Shown: positions 43,040 to 55,289 of the stretch, piece after piece
How positions within the stretch are numbered: position 1 is the first letter of the stretch
Layout: every line of letters begins with the position of its first letter
NCBI RefSeq assembly: GCF_900890425.1
Contig: NZ_CAAHFG010000001.1
Location: forward strand, 3,844,001 to 3,908,000
Length of the DNA: 64,000 nt
Origin: Pontiella desulfatans
Lineage (GTDB): Bacteria > Verrucomicrobiota > Kiritimatiellia > Kiritimatiellales > Pontiellaceae
Direction: 5' to 3'
Notes under the pieces: generated by a model
Told to the model about the DNA's origin: nothing
Database searches by the model: none
Seen by the model: only the letters and a program-made list of their open reading frames with translations
Program-made: the position numbers and the translations under genes

Positions 43040-43091
43040 CCGCCCCCCGCCCCCCTCTGGAGGGACATCGGCCTCGCTGACCTACCTGCCG

Positions 43092-46000
43092 GCTTCAATC
43101 CGCGCGCCCCGTGTGGGGCGCGACACCCGCCAAGTTTGAGATTACGGGCTGGTTCAGGTTTCAATCCGCGCGCCCCGTGTGGGGCGCGACCCTCGTCTTT
43201 TTCGACACAGGGCTTGAATATCCGGTTTCAATCCGCGCGCCCCGTGTGGGGCGCGACAAAACGACCGTTATCCGGTGCCGGGAGAATAGATGTTTCAATC
43301 CGCGCGCCCCGTGTGGGGCGCGACCGCCGCGTTCGTGGCAAGAATTGCAGTGGGAAGTTTCAATCCGCGCGCCCCGTGTGGGGCGCGACCTCAAAGCCGG
43401 CTGTCTCGAAATTGTTGAAACGTTTCAATCCGCGCGCCCCGTGTGGGGCGCGACTCAGCTCGCCATCCCGGCGGAGGGGAATTTCCTTGTTTCAATCCGC
43501 GCGCCCCGTGTGGGGCGCGACGGGCGACGGGTCATGAGCATTATTTGGCGGATGTGTTTCAATCCGCGCGCCCCGTGTGGGGCGCGACGTCGGCGTACGG
43601 CCAGAGGACGGCAACGCACGCGTTTCAATCCGCGCGCCCCGTGTGGGGCGCGACCTTGGGGTTCGCGCCGGGGGAGACGGAGAGCTCGTTTCAATCCGCG
43701 CGCCCCGTGTGGGGCGCGACGTTGTTCGCCTGCGGAAATTGGCCGGCCTCGGTGTTTCAATCCGCGCGCCCCGTGTGGGGCGCGACCTTCCATGGCGGCG
43801 CCTTTGTTGGGCACCCAGGTTTCAATCCGCGCGCCCCGTGTGGGGCGCGACATGGGCAATCAAGGATGACGTGCATGTGGATGTGTTTCAATCCGCGCGC
43901 CCCGTGTGGGGCGCGACCTGCAATGTCGAGTAAAAAATCCGCTCACGCGGGTTTCAATCCGCGCGCCCCGTGTGGGGCGCGACATTGATGGTGGCCGCAA
44001 TTCTGGCAGGCCAAAAGTTTCAATCCGCGCGCCCCGTGTGGGGCGCGACGTAACGATGACCGCACCCTGCAAAGTTTATGATGTTTCAATCCGCGCGCCC
44101 CGTGTGGGGCGCGACACGACGGTATCCGCGTCGATAACTCTTACTAGCGTTTCAATCCGCGCGCCCCGTGTGGGGCGCGACTGGATTGTCACTATTGCCC
44201 ATTCTGGCAGCACGTTTCAATCCGCGCGCCCCGTGTGGGGCGCGACGATTTGATGACACTCTGCGAGTGGACCCAGGAGGTTTCAATCCGCGCGCCCCGT
44301 GTGGGGCGCGACGATTTGGGGGCGAATGGTTCGCCCCCGGAAAGGTTTCAATCCGCGCGCCCCGTGTGGGGCGCGACGTTGCGATATGTGTTCGAGTAAT
44401 CCTTTTACTCGTTTCAATCCGCGCGCCCCGTGTGGGGCGCGACTTACGTGCCGCGCGTGATTGCGGAGAGCTTTGAGTTTCAATCCGCGCGCCCCGTGTG
44501 GGGCGCGACGAGTCGCTCTATAATCCGGATCCCTCGCAGCTTGTTTCAATCCGCGCGCCCCGTGTGGGGCGCGACGCCGACTTTGAAGACCAGGCGCCAT
44601 CTATTCCTGTTTCAATCCGCGCGCCCCGTGTGGGGCGCGACGCAGATTGCCGCCATCAATGCGGATCAGGAAATGTTTCAATCCGCGCGCCCCGTGTGGG
44701 GCGCGACGGAAAAAATGGCCGAACTGGCCGACGACTATCCAGTTTCAATCCGCGCGCCCCGTGTGGGGCGCGACCTGACCGCCGTGGTCGAGGTATCTGC
44801 CGCAGCGGTTTCAATCCGCGCGCCCCGTGTGGGGCGCGACGTGTAGTGATGGGTTGGACAAAGGGCGAGGGTTGTTTCAATCCGCGCGCCCCGTGTGGGG
44901 CGCGACTCCGGCGGGCAGCAATTGCACATGGCAGGGGATGTTTCAATCCGCGCGCCCCGTGTGGGGCGCGACCCGGCGAGAGGTCGGCGGAAAATGCCGC
45001 CATGGGTTTCAATCCGCGCGCCCCGTGTGGGGCGCGACTTTTTTATCGAATACGACCTCGCCATCCATCGGTTTCAATCCGCGCGCCCCGTGTGGGGCGC
45101 GACGCCGAAATCCAATAGGCCGCCGAGGCAATCAGCGTTTCAATCCGCGCGCCCCGTGTGGGGCGCGACGGAGCAGGTCGCACTCGGCAACGTTGTGCCG
45201 ATGTTTCAATCCGCGCGCCCCGTGTGGGGCGCGACAACGCGCACCCGAAGACGCGCCGGCGGTGGCAGTTTCAATCCGCGCGCCCCGTGTGGGGCGCGAC
45301 GGGACGGGGTTGCCGCGGTGCATCGATCGGCTGTTTCAATCCGCGCGCCCCGTGTGGGGCGCGACCCCATGCCACATAGCGGCAGGCCTTGAGCGCAAGT
45401 TTCAATCCGCGCGCCCCGTGTGGGGCGCGACGAAGCTCATGCGTAACGTTCACCCCCATTGCCGGTTTCAATCCGCGCGCCCCGTGTGGGGCGCGACAAC
45501 ATGGCTTTCTGGGTGTTCAGCGCCACGCTGGTTTCAATCCGCGCGCCCCGTGTGGGGCGCGACCACATCGACGTTGCTTTCGAGGTTGCCAGAAACGTTT
45601 CAATCCGCGCGCCCCGTGTGGGGCGCGACGAGCCGGCCACATATTCAACCGCCAGCTGCCAGTTTCAATCCGCGCGCCCCGTGTGGGGCGCGACCCGGCG
45701 CAACGAACGGGACATCGTCGATCTCCAGGTTTCAATCCGCGCGCCCCGTGTGGGGCGCGACCTACTTCGACTGGGGCATCCTCAAGCAGCCCAAGTTTCA
45801 ATCCGCGCGCCCCGTGTGGGGCGCGACTTATATCATCCTGCGCTGGCCTGATGAAGTATGAGTTTCAATCCGCGCGCCCCGTGTGGGGCGCGACCGGCGG
45901 CGGCGCTGGCCAAGGAGGGCCGGCGGATGTTTCAATCCGCGCGCCCCGTGTGGGGCGCGACATAACAACCTCACGGCCACCAACGCGGTCGACATGTTTC

Positions 46001-46160
46001 AATCCGCGCGCCCCGTGTGGGGCGCGACCTTCTTCACCGTCGAAGTCGGAGCCTGATCCCTGTTTCAATCCGCGCGCCCCGTGTGGGGCGCGACACGGTG
46101 GTATACAAGGGCATGTTGCCGCAAAATGTTTCAATCCGCGCGCCCCGTGTGGGGCGCGAC
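43092..46160 (-). CRISPR. Subtype I-C CRISPR array, 47 repeats and 46 spacers
   Basis: The 33-bp repeat has an internal stem GCGCCCC/GGGGCGC. On the minus strand it ends with ATTGAAAC, the usual I-C 3' end, so transcription runs leftward from the leader next to cas2. By counting I find 47 copies, 33-bp spacers on average. All copies look identical except the leftmost one (43092), which has GC in place of GT at its plus-strand start. This is expected for the trailer end, so orientation and age order agree. I saw no duplicated spacers by eye. Apparent reading frames inside the array are artefacts of the repeat. Confidence 0.99.
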
Positions 46161-46386
46161 GGTGGTTTTGTAAACCGTTGCGCGGAGGGAGTCGATGCTT
46201 TCTTTTGCGCGAACCTCTCGGGTGTTTGCGTGCTATTCAGTTTTCAAAGAACGTCGGCCCTTGCAAGCCGCGTGCTGGGCGGTGTTTGCGTCGGGCGCGA
46301 ACCTGCCGGGAGCTGGACGGGGGCTGGAGGTTCGCGGAGCAGGTTGAATCCCTGCGATACGTTGCCGCGCCCGCGCTGCGGCGTCG
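46161..46386 (-). promoter_or_regulatory. CRISPR leader
   Basis: This is the region between the first repeat and cas2. It contains two direct repeats 60 bp apart (GGTGTTTGCGT at 46221 and 46281), GCGCGAACCT at 46207 and 46295, and its complement AGGTTCGCG at 46328. Read on the minus strand it also has TTCTTTGAAAACTGAATAG near 46232-46251. From memory, I-C leaders share such GCGAACC/GGTTCGC hairpins and the TTCTTTGA segment. The array promoter and the spacer-integration signals should lie here. Confidence 0.8.
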
Positions 46387-46680
46387 CTACACAATCAGTG
46401 TCCCGGTTTCGAGATTGGGGGTGTCTTTTGTGCCGTGGTGCTCGACCTTGGATTCCCAGTTGGCACCGAGGAAGTAGAAACGAAGGGAATCTTCTTCGGG
46501 CTTGTAGAGGCGGAGGAGCTCGGCGCGGAGGGTCGTCCATTGGGCGGGGTCGACGAGGCATTCGAAGACGGAGTTCTGGACGCGCTGTCCGTAGTTCAGG
46601 CAGGTCTTTGCGATGCGGACCAGGCGTCGCTGCCCGGGTTTGTTGATGGTGGATACGTCGTAGGTTATCAGAACAAGCAT
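46387..46680 (-). CDS. cas2: CRISPR-associated endonuclease Cas2
   Basis: This 97-aa protein starts MLVLITYDVSTINKPGQRRL, the ferredoxin-like beta1 strand with the conserved Asp. It continues YGQRVQNSVFECLVD, diagnostic for the I-C Cas2 group. It forms the spacer-integration complex with Cas1. It is the last gene of the operon, next to the leader. Confidence 0.97.
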   Translation of the reverse strand: MLVLITYDVSTINKPGQRRLVRIAKTCLNYGQRVQNSVFECLVDPAQWTTLRAELLRLYKPEEDSLRFYFLGANWESKVEHHGTKDTPNLETGTLIV

Positions 46681-46701
46681 GGTGCCCTCCGGACTATTTC
46701 T

Positions 46702-46729
46702 ATTTTGAGATCCATTATTTCAAATCCAT
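46702..46729. repeat. Interspersed palindromic element, copy A
   Basis: A degenerate copy of the TTTCAAAT/ATTTGAGAT element abuts the stop codon of cas1. It is the most diverged of five copies (see 47768, 48156, 48658, 48990). Confidence 0.5.
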
Positions 46730-47752
46730 TTATCGCCAGATAAATGGGGGATAGGCTTCGAGGTCGCCGCGGAGATGGCGGGCGAGGAGTTGGGCCTGGA
46801 GATGCGGAAGAAGGCCGACCTTGCATTTTTCTTCGAGGTAGGGATGGGTGATCTCCTCCTGTTTGCGCTTTTGCCAGGTGGCGAGGAGGGTCTTGCGGGC
46901 GGAGTCGGTCATGGCGACGGCCCCGCCGGCGGAGTCGTTGAAGTCCTTGGGCTGGATCTGCCGACGATTGATGAGCGAGAGGACGAGCCGGTCGGCGAGG
47001 AGGGCGCGGAACTCTTCCATGAGGTCGAGGGCGAGGGACGGGCGGCCGGGGCGCAACGCATGCAAATAACCGACCTGTGGATCGAGGCCGACGCCTTCGA
47101 GGGCGGATCGGCAGTCGTGCACGAGCAGGGTGTAGGCGAAGGAGAGCATGGCGTTGACGGGATCGGTGGGCGGGCGCCGGTTGCGGCCGGTGAAGGCGAA
47201 GGCCTCTTCATTCACGGTTACAAGCTGGGGGAAGGCGGCGAAGTAGGAGGCGGCGGCTTCGCCTTCGTTGCCGCGCAGCTCATCGATGGGCATGGGGGTT
47301 TCCAAGCGGCGGAGATATTGGGTGAGCCGCGATTCGGCCTTTTTCAGTGGATCGTTTTCGCCGTGGTCGCGCAGGGCGCGGCGCAGGACGGCGCGGGCGT
47401 TGGCGAGTTTGCCGACGAGCATGTTGCGGGCGATGGCCGCAGTGGCGTCGGGGTCGTCCGCGATTCGGTATTGTCCGCGCCGCAGCAGCACGTTGCCGGA
47501 GACGGGCCCCTGGATGCGGGCGAGGAACTTGCCGTATTGGGAGAGGAAGGAGACGGCAACATTACTTTCGGCGCAGTGGTGCATCAGGAACGGACTCATG
47601 GAGACGGCGCCGAAACAGACGATGCCGTCGAGCGTGTGGACGGGTACGCGCAGGCGGGTCTCCTTTTCGACGTTGACGACGACAGACTGCCCTTCTTTGT
47701 GAAGGTAGGCGTTCTGGGTGGTGACATAGAGGGTGTTAAGGTGTTTCTTCAT
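46730..47752 (-). CDS. cas1: CRISPR-associated endonuclease Cas1 (I-C type)
   Basis: This 340-aa integrase has an N-terminal beta domain (LYVTTQNAYLHKEGQSVVV) and a helical catalytic domain. Conserved metal-ligand motifs include NAMLSFAYTLLVHDC (Glu/Asn region), GYLHALRPGRPSLALDLMEEFR (His and Asp/Glu residues). It is the usual length. It overlaps cas4 by 4 bp (ATGA) and is followed by a palindromic repeat and cas2. Confidence 0.97.
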   Translation of the reverse strand: MKKHLNTLYVTTQNAYLHKEGQSVVVNVEKETRLRVPVHTLDGIVCFGAVSMSPFLMHHCAESNVAVSFLSQYGKFLARIQGPVSGNVLLRRGQYRIADDPDATAAIARNMLVGKLANARAVLRRALRDHGENDPLKKAESRLTQYLRRLETPMPIDELRGNEGEAAASYFAAFPQLVTVNEEAFAFTGRNRRPPTDPVNAMLSFAYTLLVHDCRSALEGVGLDPQVGYLHALRPGRPSLALDLMEEFRALLADRLVLSLINRRQIQPKDFNDSAGGAVAMTDSARKTLLATWQKRKQEEITHPYLEEKCKVGLLPHLQAQLLARHLRGDLEAYPPFIWR

Positions 47753-48459
47753 AGCTCGCTCCGCTCGATTTCAAATTTGAGATCTGAAATTTCAGATAGC
47801 GCATCGGCCATGTAGCTAGCTACCGGCCGGTGCTTTTGGGGCATGCAGGTTTCGAGCAACGAGCAGGCGGCGCATTTCTTTTGGTCGAACTCGGCGGGCG
47901 GGGTTTTTCCGGATGCCATCAGCGCGTGCAGTGCGTTGGCTGTCGCCACGGTTTCAGCGCGGAGCTCCGGCGAGAATTCCACCGGTTGCCGGCGGCGCGG
48001 CTGGCCATAGAAGATGGCCCCCTCTTCAATTTCAATCCCGAGCATCTCCTCCAGACAAAGCGCCTGGGCGCAGAGCTGCACCCAGTCGCAGTGCGTCGGC
48101 TTGGGCCGGCCGCGCTTGTGCTCCACGGGAAAAACGCGGAACGTATTTCCCGTGGATTTCAAATCTGAAATTCGAGATCTGAAATGTTGCGGAATTCCAT
48201 CCCCATGGAATTCCACCACGTCGGCCTTGCCGATCAGGCCGAGTTTCAGCGACCGAAGCAACACGGCATATTCATAGCGAATGCCGTCGCGCGTTTCGTG
48301 CTCCGGCCGGTCGACGCGGTCGTGCTGCGCCCGGCCCTCGGCGGTGAAGCGGTTTTCCGTCCATTGCTGTTCCAGATGGATCAGCGCGCACTGGCGCGGG
48401 CAGTAGATAAAATGCTGCAACGCCGAGAGCGGCAGCAGGTCGGAGTCGGGAAACATCAC
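47749..48459 (-). CDS. cas4: Cas4 RecB-like nuclease with in-frame repeat insertions
   Basis: This 236-aa protein has N-terminal YCPRQC and C-terminal CAACSLLETC for the 4Fe-4S cluster. The nuclease core has GKADVVEF, FPVEHKRG and DWVQLCAQAL. Cas4 trims and orients prespacers by PAM with Cas1-Cas2. About 25 residues (GIPQHFRSRISDLKSTG region) separate VVEF from FPVEHK where family members are nearly contiguous; these are encoded by a palindromic repeat (48156-48185). A second copy (47768-47797) encodes the extreme C-terminal SEISDLKFEIE. Both lie outside the active-site motifs, so activity may be retained. It overlaps the genes on both sides by 4 bp. Confidence 0.93.
   Translation of the reverse strand: MMFPDSDLLPLSALQHFIYCPRQCALIHLEQQWTENRFTAEGRAQHDRVDRPEHETRDGIRYEYAVLLRSLKLGLIGKADVVEFHGDGIPQHFRSRISDLKSTGNTFRVFPVEHKRGRPKPTHCDWVQLCAQALCLEEMLGIEIEEGAIFYGQPRRRQPVEFSPELRAETVATANALHALMASGKTPPAEFDQKKCAACSLLETCMPQKHRPVASYMADALSEISDLKFEIERSEL
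47768..47797. repeat. Interspersed palindromic element, copy B (inside cas4 C-terminus)
   Basis: A 30-bp element built from ATTTCAAATTTGAGATC plus its relative TGAAATTTCAGAT. It is translated in frame as ISDLKFEIE at the end of Cas4. Confidence 0.75.
48156..48185. repeat. Interspersed palindromic element, copy C (inside cas4)
   Basis: A 30-bp copy of the same element, translated in frame as SRISDLKST between two conserved Cas4 nuclease motifs. It is a clear insertion relative to the family pattern. Confidence 0.75.
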
Positions 48460-48965
48460 TGCTGTCCCCGTTCCCGCTTCATCTGCTTCAATCGTTCTTC
48501 GTGCTGCTTCTTCAGCTCTTCCATAAACGCCTCGGCTTTCCCCTTTTGCTGATAGGATGCCTTCGACGTTGAAGTCAGGTGCCGTGTTCCCTTGATGTCC
48601 GATTCCTGCAACGAAAACGCCCAGCCTCCGAGCTGGCGCGAAATGCTGCGCGCCAGCGATCTGAGATTTGAAATTTGAGATTTGAGATGGCCAAAGGCCT
48701 TAATCCGTTCAATCACATGACAAATGGATCGCACCTCCCCGGCAGAGCCTTTCGCATAATACAGGAATTGAAGCAGCTCCGGCGTGGTTCCCCGCTCGAA
48801 GCCCTCCGCAATATTGTTCGGCACCGACAACGCCGCGCGTTGAATCTGGTTTGCGATATCCCCCCGCCCCCGGAACGCCGGATCCTCCGTCGCCTCGAAA
48901 ACCGCAACCGTCAAATCGACGCCATCGTTCCAAACCGGAACATCCTCGAAGTTCTCGTATTTCAT
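48456..48965 (-). CDS. Four-helix-bundle (S23/IVP-like) protein inside the cas operon
   Basis: This 169-aa protein matches the four-helix-bundle family first seen as 23S rRNA intervening-sequence proteins: FEDVPVWNDGVDLTVAVFEAT, GDIANQIQRAALSVPNNIAEGFERGT and FLYYAKGSAGEVRSICHVIERI. It has a charged C-terminal extension (FMEELKKQHEERLKQMKRERG). It lies between cas7 and cas4 and its stop overlaps the cas4 start by 4 bp, so it is translated as part of the cas operon. Family function is unclear. A palindromic repeat (48658-48688) encodes SQISNLRS in its middle. A role in CRISPR is possible but unproven; it may be a passenger. Confidence 0.85.
   Translation of the reverse strand: MKYENFEDVPVWNDGVDLTVAVFEATEDPAFRGRGDIANQIQRAALSVPNNIAEGFERGTTPELLQFLYYAKGSAGEVRSICHVIERIKAFGHLKSQISNLRSLARSISRQLGGWAFSLQESDIKGTRHLTSTSKASYQQKGKAEAFMEELKKQHEERLKQMKRERGQQ
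48658..48688. repeat. Interspersed palindromic element, copy D (inside four-helix gene)
   Basis: A GAGATTTGAAATTTGAGATT-type copy translated in frame as KSQISNLRSL in the four-helix-bundle protein. Confidence 0.75.
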
Positions 48966-48989
48966 GGTTCGCTCCTTCCGCTTTGCGGG

Positions 48990-49017
48990 ATTTCAAATCT
49001 CAGATCTCAAATTTCAA
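48990..49017. repeat. Interspersed palindromic element, copy E
   Basis: A 28-bp copy in the 134-bp gap between cas7 and the four-helix-bundle gene, close to the point where base composition changes. Confidence 0.75.
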
Positions 49018-49099
49018 CTCACATTGCTGGAGCAGAGGATTCCGCTCCATCAACGTGCCTACAGCATCTCAATCAGCTCCACCCCGTCCGGCGCTGTGC

Positions 49100-49987
49100 C
49101 TAGAATCCATCGATTGGTTCAGGAGTCAAGCCATCGAGTTCATCGAAGTCAAAAGAACCATCAGGCTCAACCTTCAAGCTACCATGAACCTTTGCCGACG
49201 AGTATTGACCGCATTTGCTTCCATGTTCCCACCAAAGAACGGTGCGTACCCGCATGCTTCCTTCTGGTCGGGCGGAAGATGCGTCGTTTTCGAAAAGGCG
49301 GGGTAGAATTTTTTTAATGATTTCAACATCGTCATCACTGAATTGGGTTTTCTCCGCCAACTGTGGATTCATGCTTCCATATGTCACATAGATGCCTTTA
49401 TCGACACGATGTTTCATGCCCATTCTGTCTGAAGACATACTGTTTTCATCGCCGCTTTTTTTCGGCGGCTCACTGTTTGTGCTTTTTGTAATTTGTGTGC
49501 TGGTAATTCCAACAGGTTCCAAGCTGAACGCCGACTGGATCGTAACCGGCCCGCGAACAGGAATCGAAACACCGTCTGCTCCTTCGCTTTTCCCAAAGGC
49601 AAACAACTGACCAAAAGCTCGTACATCAATCCATTTTTTGCAAGCGGCTTCAATTGCCTTGTCTTTATCTGCCCCTTTTTTGAATGTATCTTTCCCTAAG
49701 CCATCTTTCGAATCTTCAGCACGAGCTTTCAGGCTTTTGTGCGAGTCCGTCTTGCGATCATCCGATTGGACAAAAACAGCCTGCCCGTCTTTTTCCTCGT
49801 CGGACAGATGCATGTATCGTTCGACCAATCGATCCCGGATTTTTCGCTTTAGGCAAACGTCTGTAATTTCCCCCAGTCCTTCGTAATCGGTACGAGGACG
49901 GTTCCCGTTGAGGGGATCGCCGTTCGGATTGGCATTCTTCACTTCCATGATAATGGCAAAATCAATTTTCTTTGTTAGTGCTGACAT
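49100..49987 (-). CDS. cas7: Type I-C Cas7 (Csd2) backbone protein
   Basis: This 295-aa protein starts KKIDFAIIMEVKNANPNGDPLNGNRPRTDYEGLGEITDVCLKRKIRDRL, the signature of I-C/I-B-like Cas7. It continues with WIDVRAFGQLFAFG and SIPVRGPVTIQSAFSLEPV. Multiple copies coat the crRNA in Cascade. GGAGG lies 8 bp before the ATG. Base composition is visibly lower in G+C than cas1 and cas4. Confidence 0.97.
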   Translation of the reverse strand: MSALTKKIDFAIIMEVKNANPNGDPLNGNRPRTDYEGLGEITDVCLKRKIRDRLVERYMHLSDEEKDGQAVFVQSDDRKTDSHKSLKARAEDSKDGLGKDTFKKGADKDKAIEAACKKWIDVRAFGQLFAFGKSEGADGVSIPVRGPVTIQSAFSLEPVGITSTQITKSTNSEPPKKSGDENSMSSDRMGMKHRVDKGIYVTYGSMNPQLAEKTQFSDDDVEIIKKILPRLFENDASSARPEGSMRVRTVLWWEHGSKCGQYSSAKVHGSLKVEPDGSFDFDELDGLTPEPIDGF

Positions 49988-50004
49988 ATTTCTATCCTCC
50001 GCTG

Positions 50005-50445
50005 TTAGTTTGCTAATTCAGTTTCCACATCGTTTACTTCCGGTTCATCCGGATTTTTTTCCACCCATTTCCCATGATCGCGCTTGTGCGTTTTAAACCA
50101 GGCCCGCTGACAGTGGTAACCCAGCAGGTATTCGCCGGTAAGCCGGGTGTCCTCGGTGTATCCGTTTCCGTTCAGCTTCACATGAATTTCATCCAGCAAC
50201 TCGTCGTAGCCTTTTCGCAAACCGGGCATTCGGGTCTGAATACGCGACATATAGGGAACCAGCGCTGTTTCAATAGTTCGCCAAGTAGAAAACGGGCGAT
50301 CCGCAAACCGCTGCATCAACCGGGCCGCGGTGGTGTCGCGGCTTTCCTTGGCCATCCACAGGGCTGTTGATTCGATTCTTTCCGCGACCGCCAATAAACG
50401 GCCATACAGGTAATCTTTTGTATTTCTGTCATCTTCCAGTTCCAT
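50005..50445 (-). CDS. cas11: Cas11c small subunit, internal start within cas8c
   Basis: The last 146 codons of cas8c begin with an in-frame ATG (MELEDDRNTKDYLYGRLLAVAER) preceded by a strong AGGAG 7 bp upstream (50453-50457). In I-C systems the small subunit Cas11c is known to be produced from such an internal start at this same place (before the YLxGRLLAV segment). Internal translation is strongly supported by the RBS but not proven. Confidence 0.8.
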   Translation of the reverse strand: MELEDDRNTKDYLYGRLLAVAERIESTALWMAKESRDTTAARLMQRFADRPFSTWRTIETALVPYMSRIQTRMPGLRKGYDELLDEIHVKLNGNGYTEDTRLTGEYLLGYHCQRAWFKTHKRDHGKWVEKNPDEPEVNDVETELAN

Positions 50446-51900
50446 CTTATAGCTCCTATCCTTGTGAATTCCCTTAAACAGCGAACACGCGATCCCCAGA
50501 CATTTTTCCCACTCCCAATGCTCCAACCCCGGGCGATTCGAAACCCGCCGCACGGATGACACCATCAAATCACGCGGCAACGGAGCGCCGTCAATAATGC
50601 ACGGGAACAACCGTTCCACGGTTGAACCCAGCAGCTTGACTCCATTTTTCCCTTCGACTTTTCTACCGAAGGCCGCCCATGCAATTTCCTTCGGTGCCGG
50701 AGCACCGATAAAATGGCGGTCTTTGCCGAAATTCTGCGTCCAGGCAAATGAGTGGTGCCACTGCTCAACCCGTCTTAGAAATTCGGAGCCGGTCAGCTCG
50801 CGGTAATAGATAATGGCCAAGCGCCCTTTTGAGGCCGAGTCCAGCCCCATGACCACAATGTCTTCGGAGTCGCGGATTCCTGCGGCATAGCCAGCCATCT
50901 TTCGCCGCAGTCGCAACGCAAAATTTTGGCCGACATCTGTCGCCAATGGTTTCTCTGAAATATCGGCTTCATCTGGAACACCGAGAAAATCCAGCGAATT
51001 GGCCGTAGGATCAGGAATCTCTTTTCCGGAAACTGCCCAAGCAAGAAATGTAAGCCCAAGTTCACTTAGACTTATCCGGTAGCCTTGGCGAGAAATCAGC
51101 CACCTTAGAGCATTGTGCGCTTTCTGACTTTCCACATAACCGACTGTGCAACACTGCTTCCCCGCATCATCCTTTGAGTCTGTAAACCGCCCAAGGTATG
51201 TGTACCCATCGTTATCATTAGAAGAGATTAATTTTGCACCGTCATCCGGTGCTCGCAAAAATCTGGAGTGTTTCGTGGCTACTCGAACCATTTCACCAGA
51301 CAACATGCAAAATGACTGTTGAGCATTTGTACTCGCGTCATATCTCTGCCAGGAATTTATCAAGGTCTCATCCTCCCAGGTTCCGCTACACAAATCGTCA
51401 CTGGACTCGACCCGCCAACGGACAAAAACTTTTTTAGAATCAATTTTTGTCGCGCTCCCCTTCTCTTTTTTTGTTTTCAGTGGAATCAGCCCATGTTTTT
51501 CAATATCTGAATAGATTGTTCCGCCTTCCAGATAATTGAATACCGCCGCAACCTTTGGATGAGGAAATGAAGCCAGCCAACCCTCCATCAAGGATTTCAT
51601 TAGTCCATATCGTTCAGGGTCTCGGTCAGGTAAATCTTTGGCGCAATATCCCAGCTCCTCACAGAGCGGGTGTGGGTCAACATTTCTCGTTCTATTAGCA
51701 GACTCCTCTGTGACAGGAATAATGGTTACGGACTCAGACGATGATAATTGGCGAATATTCCGCAACTTTCCTTCATGATTTAAGATGATTTCAACATGGG
51801 CAACTTTTGCCATATGTGCAATGGGCCAAGGTTGCTTTTCATCAGGATTCATTTTCTCGATTTCATTGGCGGTCTCGTAAAGTTTCTGCATCCAGCTCAT
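50005..51900 (-). CDS. cas8c: Type I-C Cas8c (Csd1) large subunit
   Basis: This 631-aa protein starts MSWMQKLYETANEIEKM and has the Csd1 pattern (NALRWLISRQGYRISLSELGLTFLAWAVSGKEIPDP; FALRLRRKMAGYAAGIRDSEDIVVMGLDSASKGRLAIIYYREL; YLYGRLLAVAERIE). It recognises the PAM and binds target DNA in I-C Cascade. It overlaps cas5c by 4 bp and encodes Cas11c internally. Confidence 0.97.
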   Translation of the reverse strand: MSWMQKLYETANEIEKMNPDEKQPWPIAHMAKVAHVEIILNHEGKLRNIRQLSSSESVTIIPVTEESANRTRNVDPHPLCEELGYCAKDLPDRDPERYGLMKSLMEGWLASFPHPKVAAVFNYLEGGTIYSDIEKHGLIPLKTKKEKGSATKIDSKKVFVRWRVESSDDLCSGTWEDETLINSWQRYDASTNAQQSFCMLSGEMVRVATKHSRFLRAPDDGAKLISSNDNDGYTYLGRFTDSKDDAGKQCCTVGYVESQKAHNALRWLISRQGYRISLSELGLTFLAWAVSGKEIPDPTANSLDFLGVPDEADISEKPLATDVGQNFALRLRRKMAGYAAGIRDSEDIVVMGLDSASKGRLAIIYYRELTGSEFLRRVEQWHHSFAWTQNFGKDRHFIGAPAPKEIAWAAFGRKVEGKNGVKLLGSTVERLFPCIIDGAPLPRDLMVSSVRRVSNRPGLEHWEWEKCLGIACSLFKGIHKDRSYKMELEDDRNTKDYLYGRLLAVAERIESTALWMAKESRDTTAARLMQRFADRPFSTWRTIETALVPYMSRIQTRMPGLRKGYDELLDEIHVKLNGNGYTEDTRLTGEYLLGYHCQRAWFKTHKRDHGKWVEKNPDEPEVNDVETELAN

Positions 51901-52634
51901 TCGATCACCCCCATTTCTTCCGCTTCCTTCTGGTTCGGTTTTACATTTTGGTTGATGCCGAAGGTTTTCGGAGTCATTGGCCGAACAAACTTGCGCTGGT
52001 CCTGCGAGATGGATTCCGGACGCTCAAAGCGAACGATGCCGTTGCGCAATACCGGCCGCCAAAATCGCGCCCACAGCTCATGCTTTCCGGTTTCATCGGG
52101 ATAATCGAACCCGTGAAACATTAGCCCGTATGCCATTTCATCGAGGCCATCATAGGCTCCGATTCCTTCACCAAATGCGCACGGCTCGACGTAGCCTTGA
52201 CAATCGCGCGTTCCGAGAAATATGTCCTGCCGTCCACCAGTTTTGAGCACTCGGTTGCAGATAGCGAAATGCTTTCCGTCCACCCAATCCTCTTTCAGAT
52301 TAGGTTGGTGCTGATTGAATTCAAAATGCGCCCTCACCTGATATTCAACATCGTGAAGGAAGGTGAAGTAGGAAAGCTCCGGAGTTTCATTTTGATACCG
52401 ATGCAGCTTCGTTCCTTTGCTCTGAGTTCGGACCTGTTTCATCACCCGAACCTCATCCACAATCCAGATCAGCGTCGGCTTCCAGTAAATGGATTTGCAC
52501 ACACCTTTCAACGCTTCATAGGTTGGGACATGATAGGAGCATTTTTCTCCACCCATTTTGGTTAAGGGATCGCTGAAAAGTGCATATTTCCCCCATAATC
52601 GGAATTCGATTGTGTTTTTTGCTGTATCATACAT
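51897..52634 (-). CDS. cas5c: Type I-C Cas5c (crRNA-processing endonuclease)
   Basis: This 245-aa protein starts MYDTAKNTIEFRLWGKYALFSDPLTKMGGEKCSYHVPTYEALKGVCKSIYWKPTL, typical Cas5d/c. In I-C it replaces Cas6 and cleaves the repeat hairpin. I chose the ATG at 52634 because AGGAGG lies upstream; the frame opens to 52772, but that part overlaps cas3 and is not Cas5-like. It overlaps the end of cas3 by 8 bp. Confidence 0.97.
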   Translation of the reverse strand: MYDTAKNTIEFRLWGKYALFSDPLTKMGGEKCSYHVPTYEALKGVCKSIYWKPTLIWIVDEVRVMKQVRTQSKGTKLHRYQNETPELSYFTFLHDVEYQVRAHFEFNQHQPNLKEDWVDGKHFAICNRVLKTGGRQDIFLGTRDCQGYVEPCAFGEGIGAYDGLDEMAYGLMFHGFDYPDETGKHELWARFWRPVLRNGIVRFERPESISQDQRKFVRPMTPKTFGINQNVKPNQKEAEEMGVIE

Positions 52635-55077
52635 ATAGGAGTTCCTCCTCGTTAATGGGTTCAAGTGAAACACCGAACCGATTGCTGTAATATTTCTGAT
52701 CCAAATAAAAAATCTCCGTCTCCTCTTGAATCCGGAAGATGGCCTGCTCTTCCTGTAGCTTCCGGAATTCATGCGGAAATAGGTTTACTGAAAACTGCTG
52801 GGCTTTGCGTAAGAGCGGAAACTGTTTTTCGACATCAAAGGCCCCGCATAACTCGCCAATCAAATCCTTTCCTTCTTTTCCAAACGGCACGATGACGCTT
52901 TGGGTGGGTGCATCGATGGATTTGAAAAGCCGTCCGGCTTCCTTGAAGGATTGTCGAAGGTAAATGGAGGGAGACTCCCTGTGCACACGCTGATATTCAG
53001 AAACCGCTAGCGGATTAGTGGATAGCAGATTCAAAAGATTGTCTTTTTGCCCCGAGTTCCCCAACGAAACCGGATAAACCATATCGGCGGATCGATCATA
53101 AAAATAGTTTTGGTAATACCACTCCAACAAAGGCGGACCGATCCGATCATTGCCATACTTCGCAGGATCTTCGGCATAATCATCCAGCACAGTGTTTGCC
53201 TTGTCCCTGCCCACCGCAATATCCTTCAGACAATCAATATTTTCCTCAGCAGGATTCACCACAAAAACGCGCCCCTCCGCTCGAGCTCCATGCCGATTGC
53301 AGCGCCCAGCAGCTTGGGCGATTGAATCCAGCCCCGCCAGATAGCGAATGACCGATGCGAAATCAATATCCACTCCAGCCTCAATCAATTGGGTGCTGAC
53401 ACACGCGACCGGCGCTTTATCCAATCGACTTTTGACTTTATCTAAAACTTCTCTGCGATGAGCCGGGCACATTCCGGTACTCAAATGGAAGCAGGATTCC
53501 CCCAGCGACTCCGACAGCTTACCATACAATTCACGGGCGGATTTTTTTGTATTCACCACCACCAGACAGCTCCCTGACTCCGTCACTTCATTGACAGTCA
53601 GTTCAGCAATTTCATCCACGGCCCAGCCTTTTGGTTTTCGCTCATCCCGCACCTCTACCCGTTTTAACTGATCAAACAACTGCTGCACATCCGGCATCAT
53701 TTCATTCTCAGATGACAACGCTAATGCTCCTTTCAGACGATCGATGTGCTGATCTCCCAACAGAGGCTGTGTGGCCGTGCAAAGAACCACGCTACTGCCG
53801 CAGGACTGAACGAGAAAATTCACTGAATTACAGAACATGTGCACGCACCGAATCGGAAGCGTCTGGATTTCATCAAAAACAATGACGGAACGTGCCAACT
53901 GATGCATGCGCCGGGCCCCACGCGTTCCCCCTCCGAACAATGCTTCCAGAAACTGAACCATGGTGGTGTAAACAATCGGAGCGTCCCAATTGTCACAAAG
54001 CAGCTTTTCCTTCCAGCTCTGCCGCTCGGCCCCGACATTTGAATGATGCTCCAAAACTATACGCCCGGAATCTCCTTCATCTACTTCAAGGATCTTACGC
54101 ACTTCACACGCATTTTGATCGATGATTGATGTGAATGGGATCACATAGATAATCCGATCCATTTCATGCTCTTGTGCGTGATGCAGAGCAAAGCGCAAAC
54201 TGGCCAGCGTTTTTCCTCCTCCGGTCGGAACGGTTAACGAGAACAATCCGGTATCCCTTCCGGCTGATTCCAGACAATGCCGAGAGACATTGGAACGAAT
54301 CCAGTTCACACTTCCAACATCCGGTATACCGAATCGTTTCAGATGTTGCTCCAAACGCTCAATCAAAACATTCCAACCAACATAACTGCCATTTTGTCGA
54401 AATTGAGCGGCATGAACTTTCTCTGAATCAGCCGTATCCTGACGGTCAGCATCAATTAAACAGCTAAAAAGGAAACGAACCAGAAGTCCGAGTTGGAAAT
54501 GAAAGACAGTGGAATCCTGACGTTTTTCCGGAATGTGGGCATATATTTTTTTTACGGTCTGCTGAAACGACTGCAGCAATCCTTCCTTTTCCAAAAACTT
54601 AGAAACCTCCGCTCTAACCTCAGAACGATCCATTACTTCTGTGCGATGGGTTTTGTTGTCGGGTTTATTTATTCGACCTGTAAAGGAATCCTTAATTCCA
54701 TCGTCTCCACTGGAAAGACAATCAATGAGTCCAGAATGATGTGAAACAAGGCAGAGCGCCAATATTTGAGCAAAAAGTTGATGGGAATTATCCAGAGCAC
54801 ACCGATTCCATAGTATTTGAGCCCCTGCCGTGGAATGGTCAATTGTACCCCTCAACTGACCCGCATCGACATATTCCTCATCAACGTCCTGATTGAGCAA
54901 TCCAATAGCAGACCGAATATAAACTTGAAAATCAGAACTGTATTTTCCGGTATCATGAAGCAAACCAAGCAACGTCCCCAAGTCAGTCAGTCCAATTTTT
55001 TCAGCATTTCGTCCCGACAATTCTGCAACTTGCCGGAGATGATCCTGCAAGCTTTGATTTTGATGCGCTAAATACAT
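52627..55077 (-). CDS. cas3: CRISPR-associated helicase/nuclease Cas3
   Basis: This 816-aa protein has an N-terminal HD nuclease (H13, HD at 41-42 in LLHDTGKYS) and a superfamily 2 helicase: Walker A PTGGGKT at 284-290, DEIQ at 402-405, LCTATQP, and motif VI region IAQAAGRCNRHG. It degrades the target recruited by Cascade. I chose the ATG at 55077 (MYLAHQNQS) with AGAGG 6 bp upstream; the frame extends to 55122 without Cas3 similarity. It is the first complete gene of the operon. Confidence 0.96.
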   Translation of the reverse strand: MYLAHQNQSLQDHLRQVAELSGRNAEKIGLTDLGTLLGLLHDTGKYSSDFQVYIRSAIGLLNQDVDEEYVDAGQLRGTIDHSTAGAQILWNRCALDNSHQLFAQILALCLVSHHSGLIDCLSSGDDGIKDSFTGRINKPDNKTHRTEVMDRSEVRAEVSKFLEKEGLLQSFQQTVKKIYAHIPEKRQDSTVFHFQLGLLVRFLFSCLIDADRQDTADSEKVHAAQFRQNGSYVGWNVLIERLEQHLKRFGIPDVGSVNWIRSNVSRHCLESAGRDTGLFSLTVPTGGGKTLASLRFALHHAQEHEMDRIIYVIPFTSIIDQNACEVRKILEVDEGDSGRIVLEHHSNVGAERQSWKEKLLCDNWDAPIVYTTMVQFLEALFGGGTRGARRMHQLARSVIVFDEIQTLPIRCVHMFCNSVNFLVQSCGSSVVLCTATQPLLGDQHIDRLKGALALSSENEMMPDVQQLFDQLKRVEVRDERKPKGWAVDEIAELTVNEVTESGSCLVVVNTKKSARELYGKLSESLGESCFHLSTGMCPAHRREVLDKVKSRLDKAPVACVSTQLIEAGVDIDFASVIRYLAGLDSIAQAAGRCNRHGARAEGRVFVVNPAEENIDCLKDIAVGRDKANTVLDDYAEDPAKYGNDRIGPPLLEWYYQNYFYDRSADMVYPVSLGNSGQKDNLLNLLSTNPLAVSEYQRVHRESPSIYLRQSFKEAGRLFKSIDAPTQSVIVPFGKEGKDLIGELCGAFDVEKQFPLLRKAQQFSVNLFPHEFRKLQEEQAIFRIQEETEIFYLDQKYYSNRFGVSLEPINEEELLYV

Positions 55078-55289
55078 GGCATGCCTCTGCAAATTGAATC
55101 CCTTAAAAATATGCCCCCCCAATCTGTTGGTTTAGTGAACATCCGCTGGAAATCCGGTTCTTCTCGGAAGTGCGTCTCAAAGATCCCAGCGAATCGGGCG
55201 GCGCGGGTGGCGACGTTTCCCAAATGCTGCCCGAGCGGCTGCCAGTCTTTGGGCTCCGCTCCCTCTTTGCTGTGGGCATAGTATTCCAT
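55068..55289 (-). pseudogene. Truncated cas3-like HD-domain 5' remnant
   Basis: This 73-codon frame starts MEYYAHSKEGAEPKDWQPLGQHLGNVATRAARFAGIF, which is the canonical N-terminus of an I-C Cas3 HD domain (YYAHS, HL..VA). It loses similarity before the HD motif and runs out of frame into the start of the intact cas3, overlapping it by 10 bp. It is G+C-rich, unlike the intact cas3. I read it as the 5' end of a displaced cas3; translation as a leader peptide coupled to cas3 cannot be excluded. Confidence 0.75.

What the first reader, a model, noticed from the sequence alone, without database searches (positions are those of the whole stretch)
48966..55289. Effector module of the I-C system looks replaced in place
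A G+C-rich cas3 N-terminal fragment (55068-55289) precedes an intact, lower-G+C cas3. cas3, cas5c, cas8c and cas7 all look AT-richer than cas4, cas1, cas2 and the array. The palindromic repeats in cas4 and its neighbours are absent from the effector genes. These three facts together suggest recombination with one breakpoint near 55.13 kb and the other near 49.0-49.1 kb.
Basis: partly seen in the sequence, partly recalled or inferred. Interest (0 to 1): 0.7.

Follow-up and report, generated by a model that had tools for sequence, protein, structure and literature searches.

The report
Swapped CRISPR effector module with scars
In this bacterium the target-cutting genes of a type I-C CRISPR system were replaced by those of a distantly related I-C system; short remnants of the old first and last genes still flank the insert, and close relatives show the same kind of exchange with borders in nearly the same places.

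Summary
Cas4/Cas1/Cas2 are 74-90% identical to same-genus and same-order loci, whose Cas3/5/7 are only 27-34% identical to the window's. The window's effectors belong to another I-C clade (Bacillus halodurans-like, not Desulfovibrio vulgaris-like). AU tests reject congruence both ways (p 3e-7 Cas1, 7e-20 Cas7). Independent swaps with such scars occur in G265, G069 and, judging by scars, other phyla. Like-for-like swaps inside the genus cross over in similar places: near cas3 codon 30-50 and in the cas7 3' end. So the effector genes behave as a cassette in a slot bounded inside cas3 and cas7. In 8 of 9 stub loci the stub stop lies within 20 nt of the new cas3 start (background 27%), suggesting translational coupling (inferred). 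In-situ effector replacement is already known (PMC5704561, PMC6452270); the paired scars and shared borders may be new. Composition and palindromic repeats alone are weak evidence.

The parts
55068..55289 (-). 5' scar: stub ORF; residues 1 to ~39 (55289-55173) are the resident-type Cas3 N-terminus, its stop overlaps the new cas3 start
   Evidence: HMM E 5e-12; GC3 0.74 like the host; stop/start overlap
55083..55172 (-). 5' junction zone, origin not assigned
   Evidence: GC falls to 0.46; no DNA match above shuffles to resident loci or nearest I-type loci
52627..55077 (-). incoming cas3, intact motifs (HD-GK, GGGKT, DE-Q, AGR-NR)
   Evidence: 59-62% identical to L074, L085-L087
51897..52634 (-). 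incoming cas5c
   Evidence: TIGR01876; B. halodurans-like 4f3m E 1.9e-82
50005..51900 (-). incoming cas8c
   Evidence: TIGR01863 E 8.5e-98
49100..49987 (-). incoming cas7
   Evidence: TIGR02589 E 5.4e-95; tree position in I clade
49059..49100 (-). 3' scar: last 13 codons and stop of the resident cas7 (GTAPDGVELIEML-stop), sharing one G with the new cas7 stop
   Evidence: 34/42 nt to same-genus L065 and L067; BLASTN 31/35, E 2.5e-6
48456..48965 (-). four-helix-bundle gene, resident side; 86% identical orthologue at the same place in L068
   Evidence: TIGR02436
47749..48459 (-). resident cas4
   Evidence: TIGR00372; 74-79% to relatives
46730..47752 (-). resident cas1
   Evidence: TIGR03640; 84-88% to relatives
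46387..46680 (-). resident cas2
   Evidence: TIGR01573; 82-90% to relatives
43090..46190 (-). CRISPR array, I-C repeat GTCGCGCCCCACACGGGGCGCGCGGATTGAAAC; left end approximate

Best explanation
A resident D. vulgaris-like I-C effector module (cas3-cas5c-cas8c-cas7) was replaced in place by a divergent B. halodurans-like I-C module. cas4, cas1, cas2, the array and the outermost ends of the old module stayed: the first ~37 codons of the old cas3 and the last 13 codons of the old cas7. In this group the effector genes behave as an exchangeable cassette in a slot whose borders lie inside cas3 (about codon 30-50) and in the cas7 3' end. Exchange of like modules leaves mosaic cas3 and cas7 genes; exchange of unlike modules leaves a stub and a tail. 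Selection plausibly keeps the resident start region and the adaptation genes. The stub is probably still translated and hands ribosomes to the new cas3. Shown: the replacement, both scars, recurrence, similar border positions. Inferred: recombination as the physical process, the selection, and the translational coupling.
For: Adaptation proteins near those of same-genus loci while effectors differ; AU tests p 3e-7 and 7e-20; stub and cas7 tail; the same pair of scars in L074, matching its own genus mate L084 at 74-86% DNA; L076/L179 with 99% identical Cas1, the same repeat and unlike effectors, plus an 85% identical cas7 tail; like-for-like swaps with borders in the same regions; stub stops clustered at the new cas3 start, 8 of 9 against 27% background, p 2e-4.
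Against: The window's upstream flank is not shared with L065 or L069, so the 5' border has no synteny support. The stub is not closer to genus mates than to other R-type cas3. The cas7 tail is short, and weak in the broader protein HMM (E 1.3). Border statistics rest on few, non-independent pairs, six of eight from one group. The coupling test was set after seeing the data. L076 shows a tail but no stub.
Confidence: 0.9

Rival explanations
1. The stub is a conserved leader peptide of I-type cas3 operons, not a scar.
For: Stubs occur before I-type cas3 in about ten loci of several phyla and their stops cluster at the cas3 start.
Against: Absent from most I-type loci (about 60 of 70); cut anywhere between residue ~27 and beyond 70; resident-clade sequence; the L074 stub matches the cas3 of its own genus mate. 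It may still have been adopted as a leader after the swap.
Confidence: 0.04
2. The adaptation genes were replaced instead, and the I-type effectors are the original ones.
For: Incongruent trees alone cannot tell the direction.
Against: Both remnants are of R-type effector genes; adaptation genes match the host genus; no I-type cas7 tail behind any R-type module in 51 loci.
Confidence: 0.02
3. Replacement happened, but by unrelated illegitimate joins each time; the similar border positions reflect only selection for a complete new module and loss of old genes, not crossovers at preferred sites.
For: Junction spacers of the window and L074 do not match; stub lengths vary between loci.
Against: Like-for-like swaps, where whole homologous genes were available for crossover, have borders in the same parts of cas3 and cas7.
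Confidence: 0.35
4. The window acquired the module from a donor that already carried R-type stub and tail, by homologous recombination through these ends.
For: Composite modules exist (L074, L113), and the window lies near them in the Cas7 tree.
Against: The window's tail is closest to its own genus; the nearest I-type loci L085-L087 gave no stub or tail hit.
Confidence: 0.15

Closest known systems
In situ replacement of effector genes with a fixed adaptation module (PMC5704561, PMC6452270)
   Same: Adaptation genes and array stay, effector genes are replaced, also within one subtype; borders can be read at nucleotide level.
   Different: I-C was not among the subtypes named for the within-subtype scan, and the parts read do not mention cas3 stubs, cas7 tails, common borders or coupling. 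Their supplementary border figure could not be read.
Type I-C of Desulfovibrio vulgaris (PDB 7kha, 8dej)
   Same: Clade of the resident module: L067 Cas8c E 2.5e-97.
   Different: This is what was removed here, apart from the cas3 stub and the cas7 tail.
Type I-C of Bacillus halodurans (Cas5c BH0337, PDB 4f3m)
   Same: Clade of the incoming module: window Cas5c E 1.9e-82.
   Different: Here it is paired with a resident adaptation module and flanked by scars.

Membership tests
Type I-C CRISPR-Cas | Cas8c, Cas7 (Csd2) and Cas5c above curated cut-offs | tested here: met
   TIGR01863, TIGR02589, TIGR01876
Type I-C CRISPR-Cas | Gene order cas3-cas5-cas8-cas7-cas4-cas1-cas2 and an I-C repeat | tested here: met
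   Order, with a four-helix-bundle gene between cas7 and cas4; repeat
Type I-C CRISPR-Cas | Active interference | not testable with these tools
   Motifs of Cas3 are intact; activity needs an assay
In situ effector module replacement | Near relatives share the adaptation genes but not the effectors | tested here: met
In situ effector module replacement | Sharp borders with resident remnants | tested here: met
   stub and tail
In situ effector module replacement | Syntenic upstream flank in relatives | tested here: inconclusive
   Window upstream flank not shared with L065 or L069 (other listings were cut). In L074/L084 similarity reaches only about 50 nt upstream of the stub.

The most novel reading that the evidence does not exclude
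Type I-C loci have a fixed exchange slot: effector cassettes swap repeatedly, across phyla, by crossovers confined to the cas3 5' end (about codon 30-50) and the cas7 3' end, and the retained cas3 stub serves as a translated leader that couples the new cas3 to the resident translation start.
Probability: 0.4. Interest if true: 0.72.

Novelty: new variant of a known kind. Interest (0 to 1): 0.58.

Why it matters
Module shuffling of CRISPR systems is usually inferred from discordant trees. Here the junctions themselves can be read, recur in independent lineages, and lie at similar positions whether like or unlike modules are exchanged. That makes the frequency and mechanism of effector exchange (for example as escape from anti-CRISPRs, as PMC6452270 proposes) countable from genomes by scanning for cas3 stubs and cas7 tails. 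It also warns annotators that a short Cas3 N-terminal ORF before an intact cas3 need not be an assembly error or a separate Cas3''.

Tried and rejected
Composition as proof: rejected, since native effector genes are also mostly AT-richer. Palindromic repeats as proof: rejected, since the core motif occurs nowhere else in the window either. Conserved leader peptide: rejected. A second retained cas3 piece inside the stub (PDFQR) was suggestive at protein level but not above shuffles at DNA level. Donor search in plasmids: nothing above 37% for Cas3 among the listed hits; in viral contigs: no relative of Cas8c. Shared spacers between L076 and L179: none.

Full report
WHAT WAS CHECKED. The window is G000:C1:3844001-3908000 of an 8.66-Mb genome in 6 contigs. 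The I-C operon lies on the minus strand: cas3 55077-52627, cas5c 52634-51897, cas8c 51900-50005, cas7 49987-49100, a four-helix-bundle gene 48965-48456, cas4, cas1, cas2, array.

COMPOSITION, WITH A CONTROL. Effector genes have GC3 0.46-0.55, cas4/1/2 0.72-0.81, the stub 0.74. In same-genus and same-order loci the native effector genes are also mostly lower (GC3 0.50-0.63) than cas4/cas1 (0.59-0.77). The window's gap is larger, but composition alone would not carry the case. The palindromic repeats sit only at 46.7-49.0 kb, and the core motif is found nowhere else in the window, so their absence from the effectors says little.

THE DECISIVE COMPARISON. Five same-genus or same-order loci (L065-L069) carry Cas1 at 84-88% (86-89% in the whole-genome search), Cas4 at 74-79% and, where present, Cas2 at 82-90% identity, yet their Cas3/Cas5/Cas7 are 27-34% identical to the window's, and these genomes gave no hit in the search with the window's Cas8c. 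Their effectors ('resident', R) and the window's ('incoming', I) are both I-C by NCBIfam cut-offs. The R Cas8c is D. vulgaris-like (8dej, E 2.5e-97); the I Cas5c is B. halodurans-like (4f3m, E 1.9e-82). A scan of 84,980 species genomes gave 80 I-type loci, the closest from MAGs labelled Deltaproteobacteria and Acidobacteria at Cas7 67-72%. In the Cas1 tree the window sits with five R-type loci (96/95*), and grouping it with its effector kin is rejected (p-AU 3e-7). In the Cas7 tree it is deep in the I clade, and grouping it with the loci of its genus and order is rejected (p-AU 7e-20).

TWO SCARS. An HMM built from R-type Cas3 N-termini finds the stub at E 5e-12 over residues 1-39. Directly after the new cas7 stop lies GTAPDGVELIEML-stop (49100-49059). 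Same-genus Cas7 ends GDAPDGVELIEML-stop; 34 of 42 nucleotides are identical to L065 and L067, the best among the R-type loci compared. At protein level this short tail scores E 1.2e-4 with the first HMM and only 1.3 with the broader one; BLASTN gives 31/35, E 2.5e-6. The stub is compatible with the genus (up to 66% DNA) but not closer to it than to other R-type cas3, so its local origin is likely rather than proven.

RECURRENCE. L074 (G265) has I-type effectors (Cas3 62%, Cas5 69%, Cas7 66% to the window) and both scars, but its stub and tail match its own genus mate L084: DNA 86% identical up to L074:3688 and 75% from 9848 on, with the I module between. L076 (G069) and L179 (G197) of one genus have Cas1 99% identical and the same repeat sequence, but I against R effectors; L076 keeps a cas7 tail 85% identical to L179. 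Stubs precede I-type cas3 also in L088, L093 (weak), L098, L113, L114, L146, L162 and (long, decayed) L163; tails follow I-type cas7 in L102, L128, weakly L113, and five codons by eye in L077. Two R-type loci (L081, L082) also carry an extra stub. No I-type cas7 tail was found behind any of 51 R-type modules. Besides stubs and cas3 genes themselves, the HMM gave one off-target hit below E 0.05 among the loci read in six frames (L167, another system). At least five to six changes of type are forced by well-supported branches of the Cas1 trees.

SHARED BORDERS. Within the genus, R modules are also swapped. L065 and L067 (Cas1 92%) are 81% identical in DNA from 3.4 kb upstream to about cas3 codon 43, then lose similarity and regain it in cas7 (change-points at codon 32 and 108 codons before the stop). 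L065 and L068 show the converse: a module 88-92% identical in DNA inside flanks of about 75%, from about cas3 codon 11 to 28 codons before the cas7 stop, which reads as a recent cassette transfer. In eight swapped R-R pairs the first 42 Cas3 residues are 65% identical on average against 49% in 330 control pairs of similar overall Cas3 divergence (p 4.5e-5, pairs not independent), and the excess ends by about column 48. In vertically related pairs, by contrast, these 42 residues are usually less conserved than the rest. The window's stub (37-39 codons) and tail (13 codons), and L074's (about 38 and 38), end in the same regions.

MECHANISM. Shown: replacement in place; resident remnants at both ends; independent recurrence; similar border positions in like and unlike swaps. 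Inferred: exchange by recombination near the conserved gene ends, filtered by selection for a complete new effector set plus the resident start region and adaptation genes. Repeats of I and R loci share the general I-C form, which would let the incoming Cas5c and Cas8c serve the resident array (not tested). A further inference is translational coupling: in 8 of 9 stub loci the stub stop lies within 20 nt of the new cas3 start, against 27% for control frames (p 2e-4), three as ATGA overlaps and the window as ATGTATTTAG. The test window was set after seeing the data and start codons were assigned by rule, so this is a lead.

WHAT IS KNOWN. In-situ effector replacement with fixed adaptation genes, including within a subtype, is described in PMC5704561 and PMC6452270. 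The parts read there do not describe cas3/cas7 remnants or fixed borders, and I-C is not among the subtypes named for the within-subtype scan; their supplementary border figure was not available. The window is therefore a clear instance of a known kind, with features (paired scars, common borders, possible coupling) that I did not find described.

LIMITS. R-type loci were sampled only inside the phylum; swaps in other phyla rest on scars. The window's upstream flank is not shared with L065 or L069, so the 5' border lacks synteny support. Identities depend on which loci were drawn. No function was tested.

Noticed in passing
window 48456-48965: A four-helix-bundle (23S rRNA intervening-sequence type) gene sits between cas7 and cas4; relatives sit at the same place in L068 (86%) and L081 (78%) and near cas4/cas1 in about a dozen of the roughly 139 loci compared. 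Its role there is unknown.
   Followed up: partly
window 46695-49012: Palindromic repeats of about 24 nt lie between and inside the reading frames of cas4 and the four-helix-bundle gene, adding peptides such as KSQISNLRS; similar repeats lie beside the same gene in L068 and L081.
   Followed up: partly
L065 3704-10099 and L068: A same-genus effector module is 88-92% identical in DNA while its flanks are about 75%: a recent transfer of a resident-type cassette.
   Followed up: yes
L079, L080: I-type effector genes lie divergently beside cas4-cas1-cas2 rather than in the usual slot.
   Followed up: no
L081 2901-3107, L082 2896-3087: R-type cas3 genes are themselves preceded by a second, decayed cas3 stub, hinting at like-for-like swaps that also left scars.
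   Followed up: partly
L167, L182, L191: I-C-like Cas1 lies next to a different effector set (cas7 then cas3, 26-31% identity), possible swaps between subtypes.
   Followed up: no
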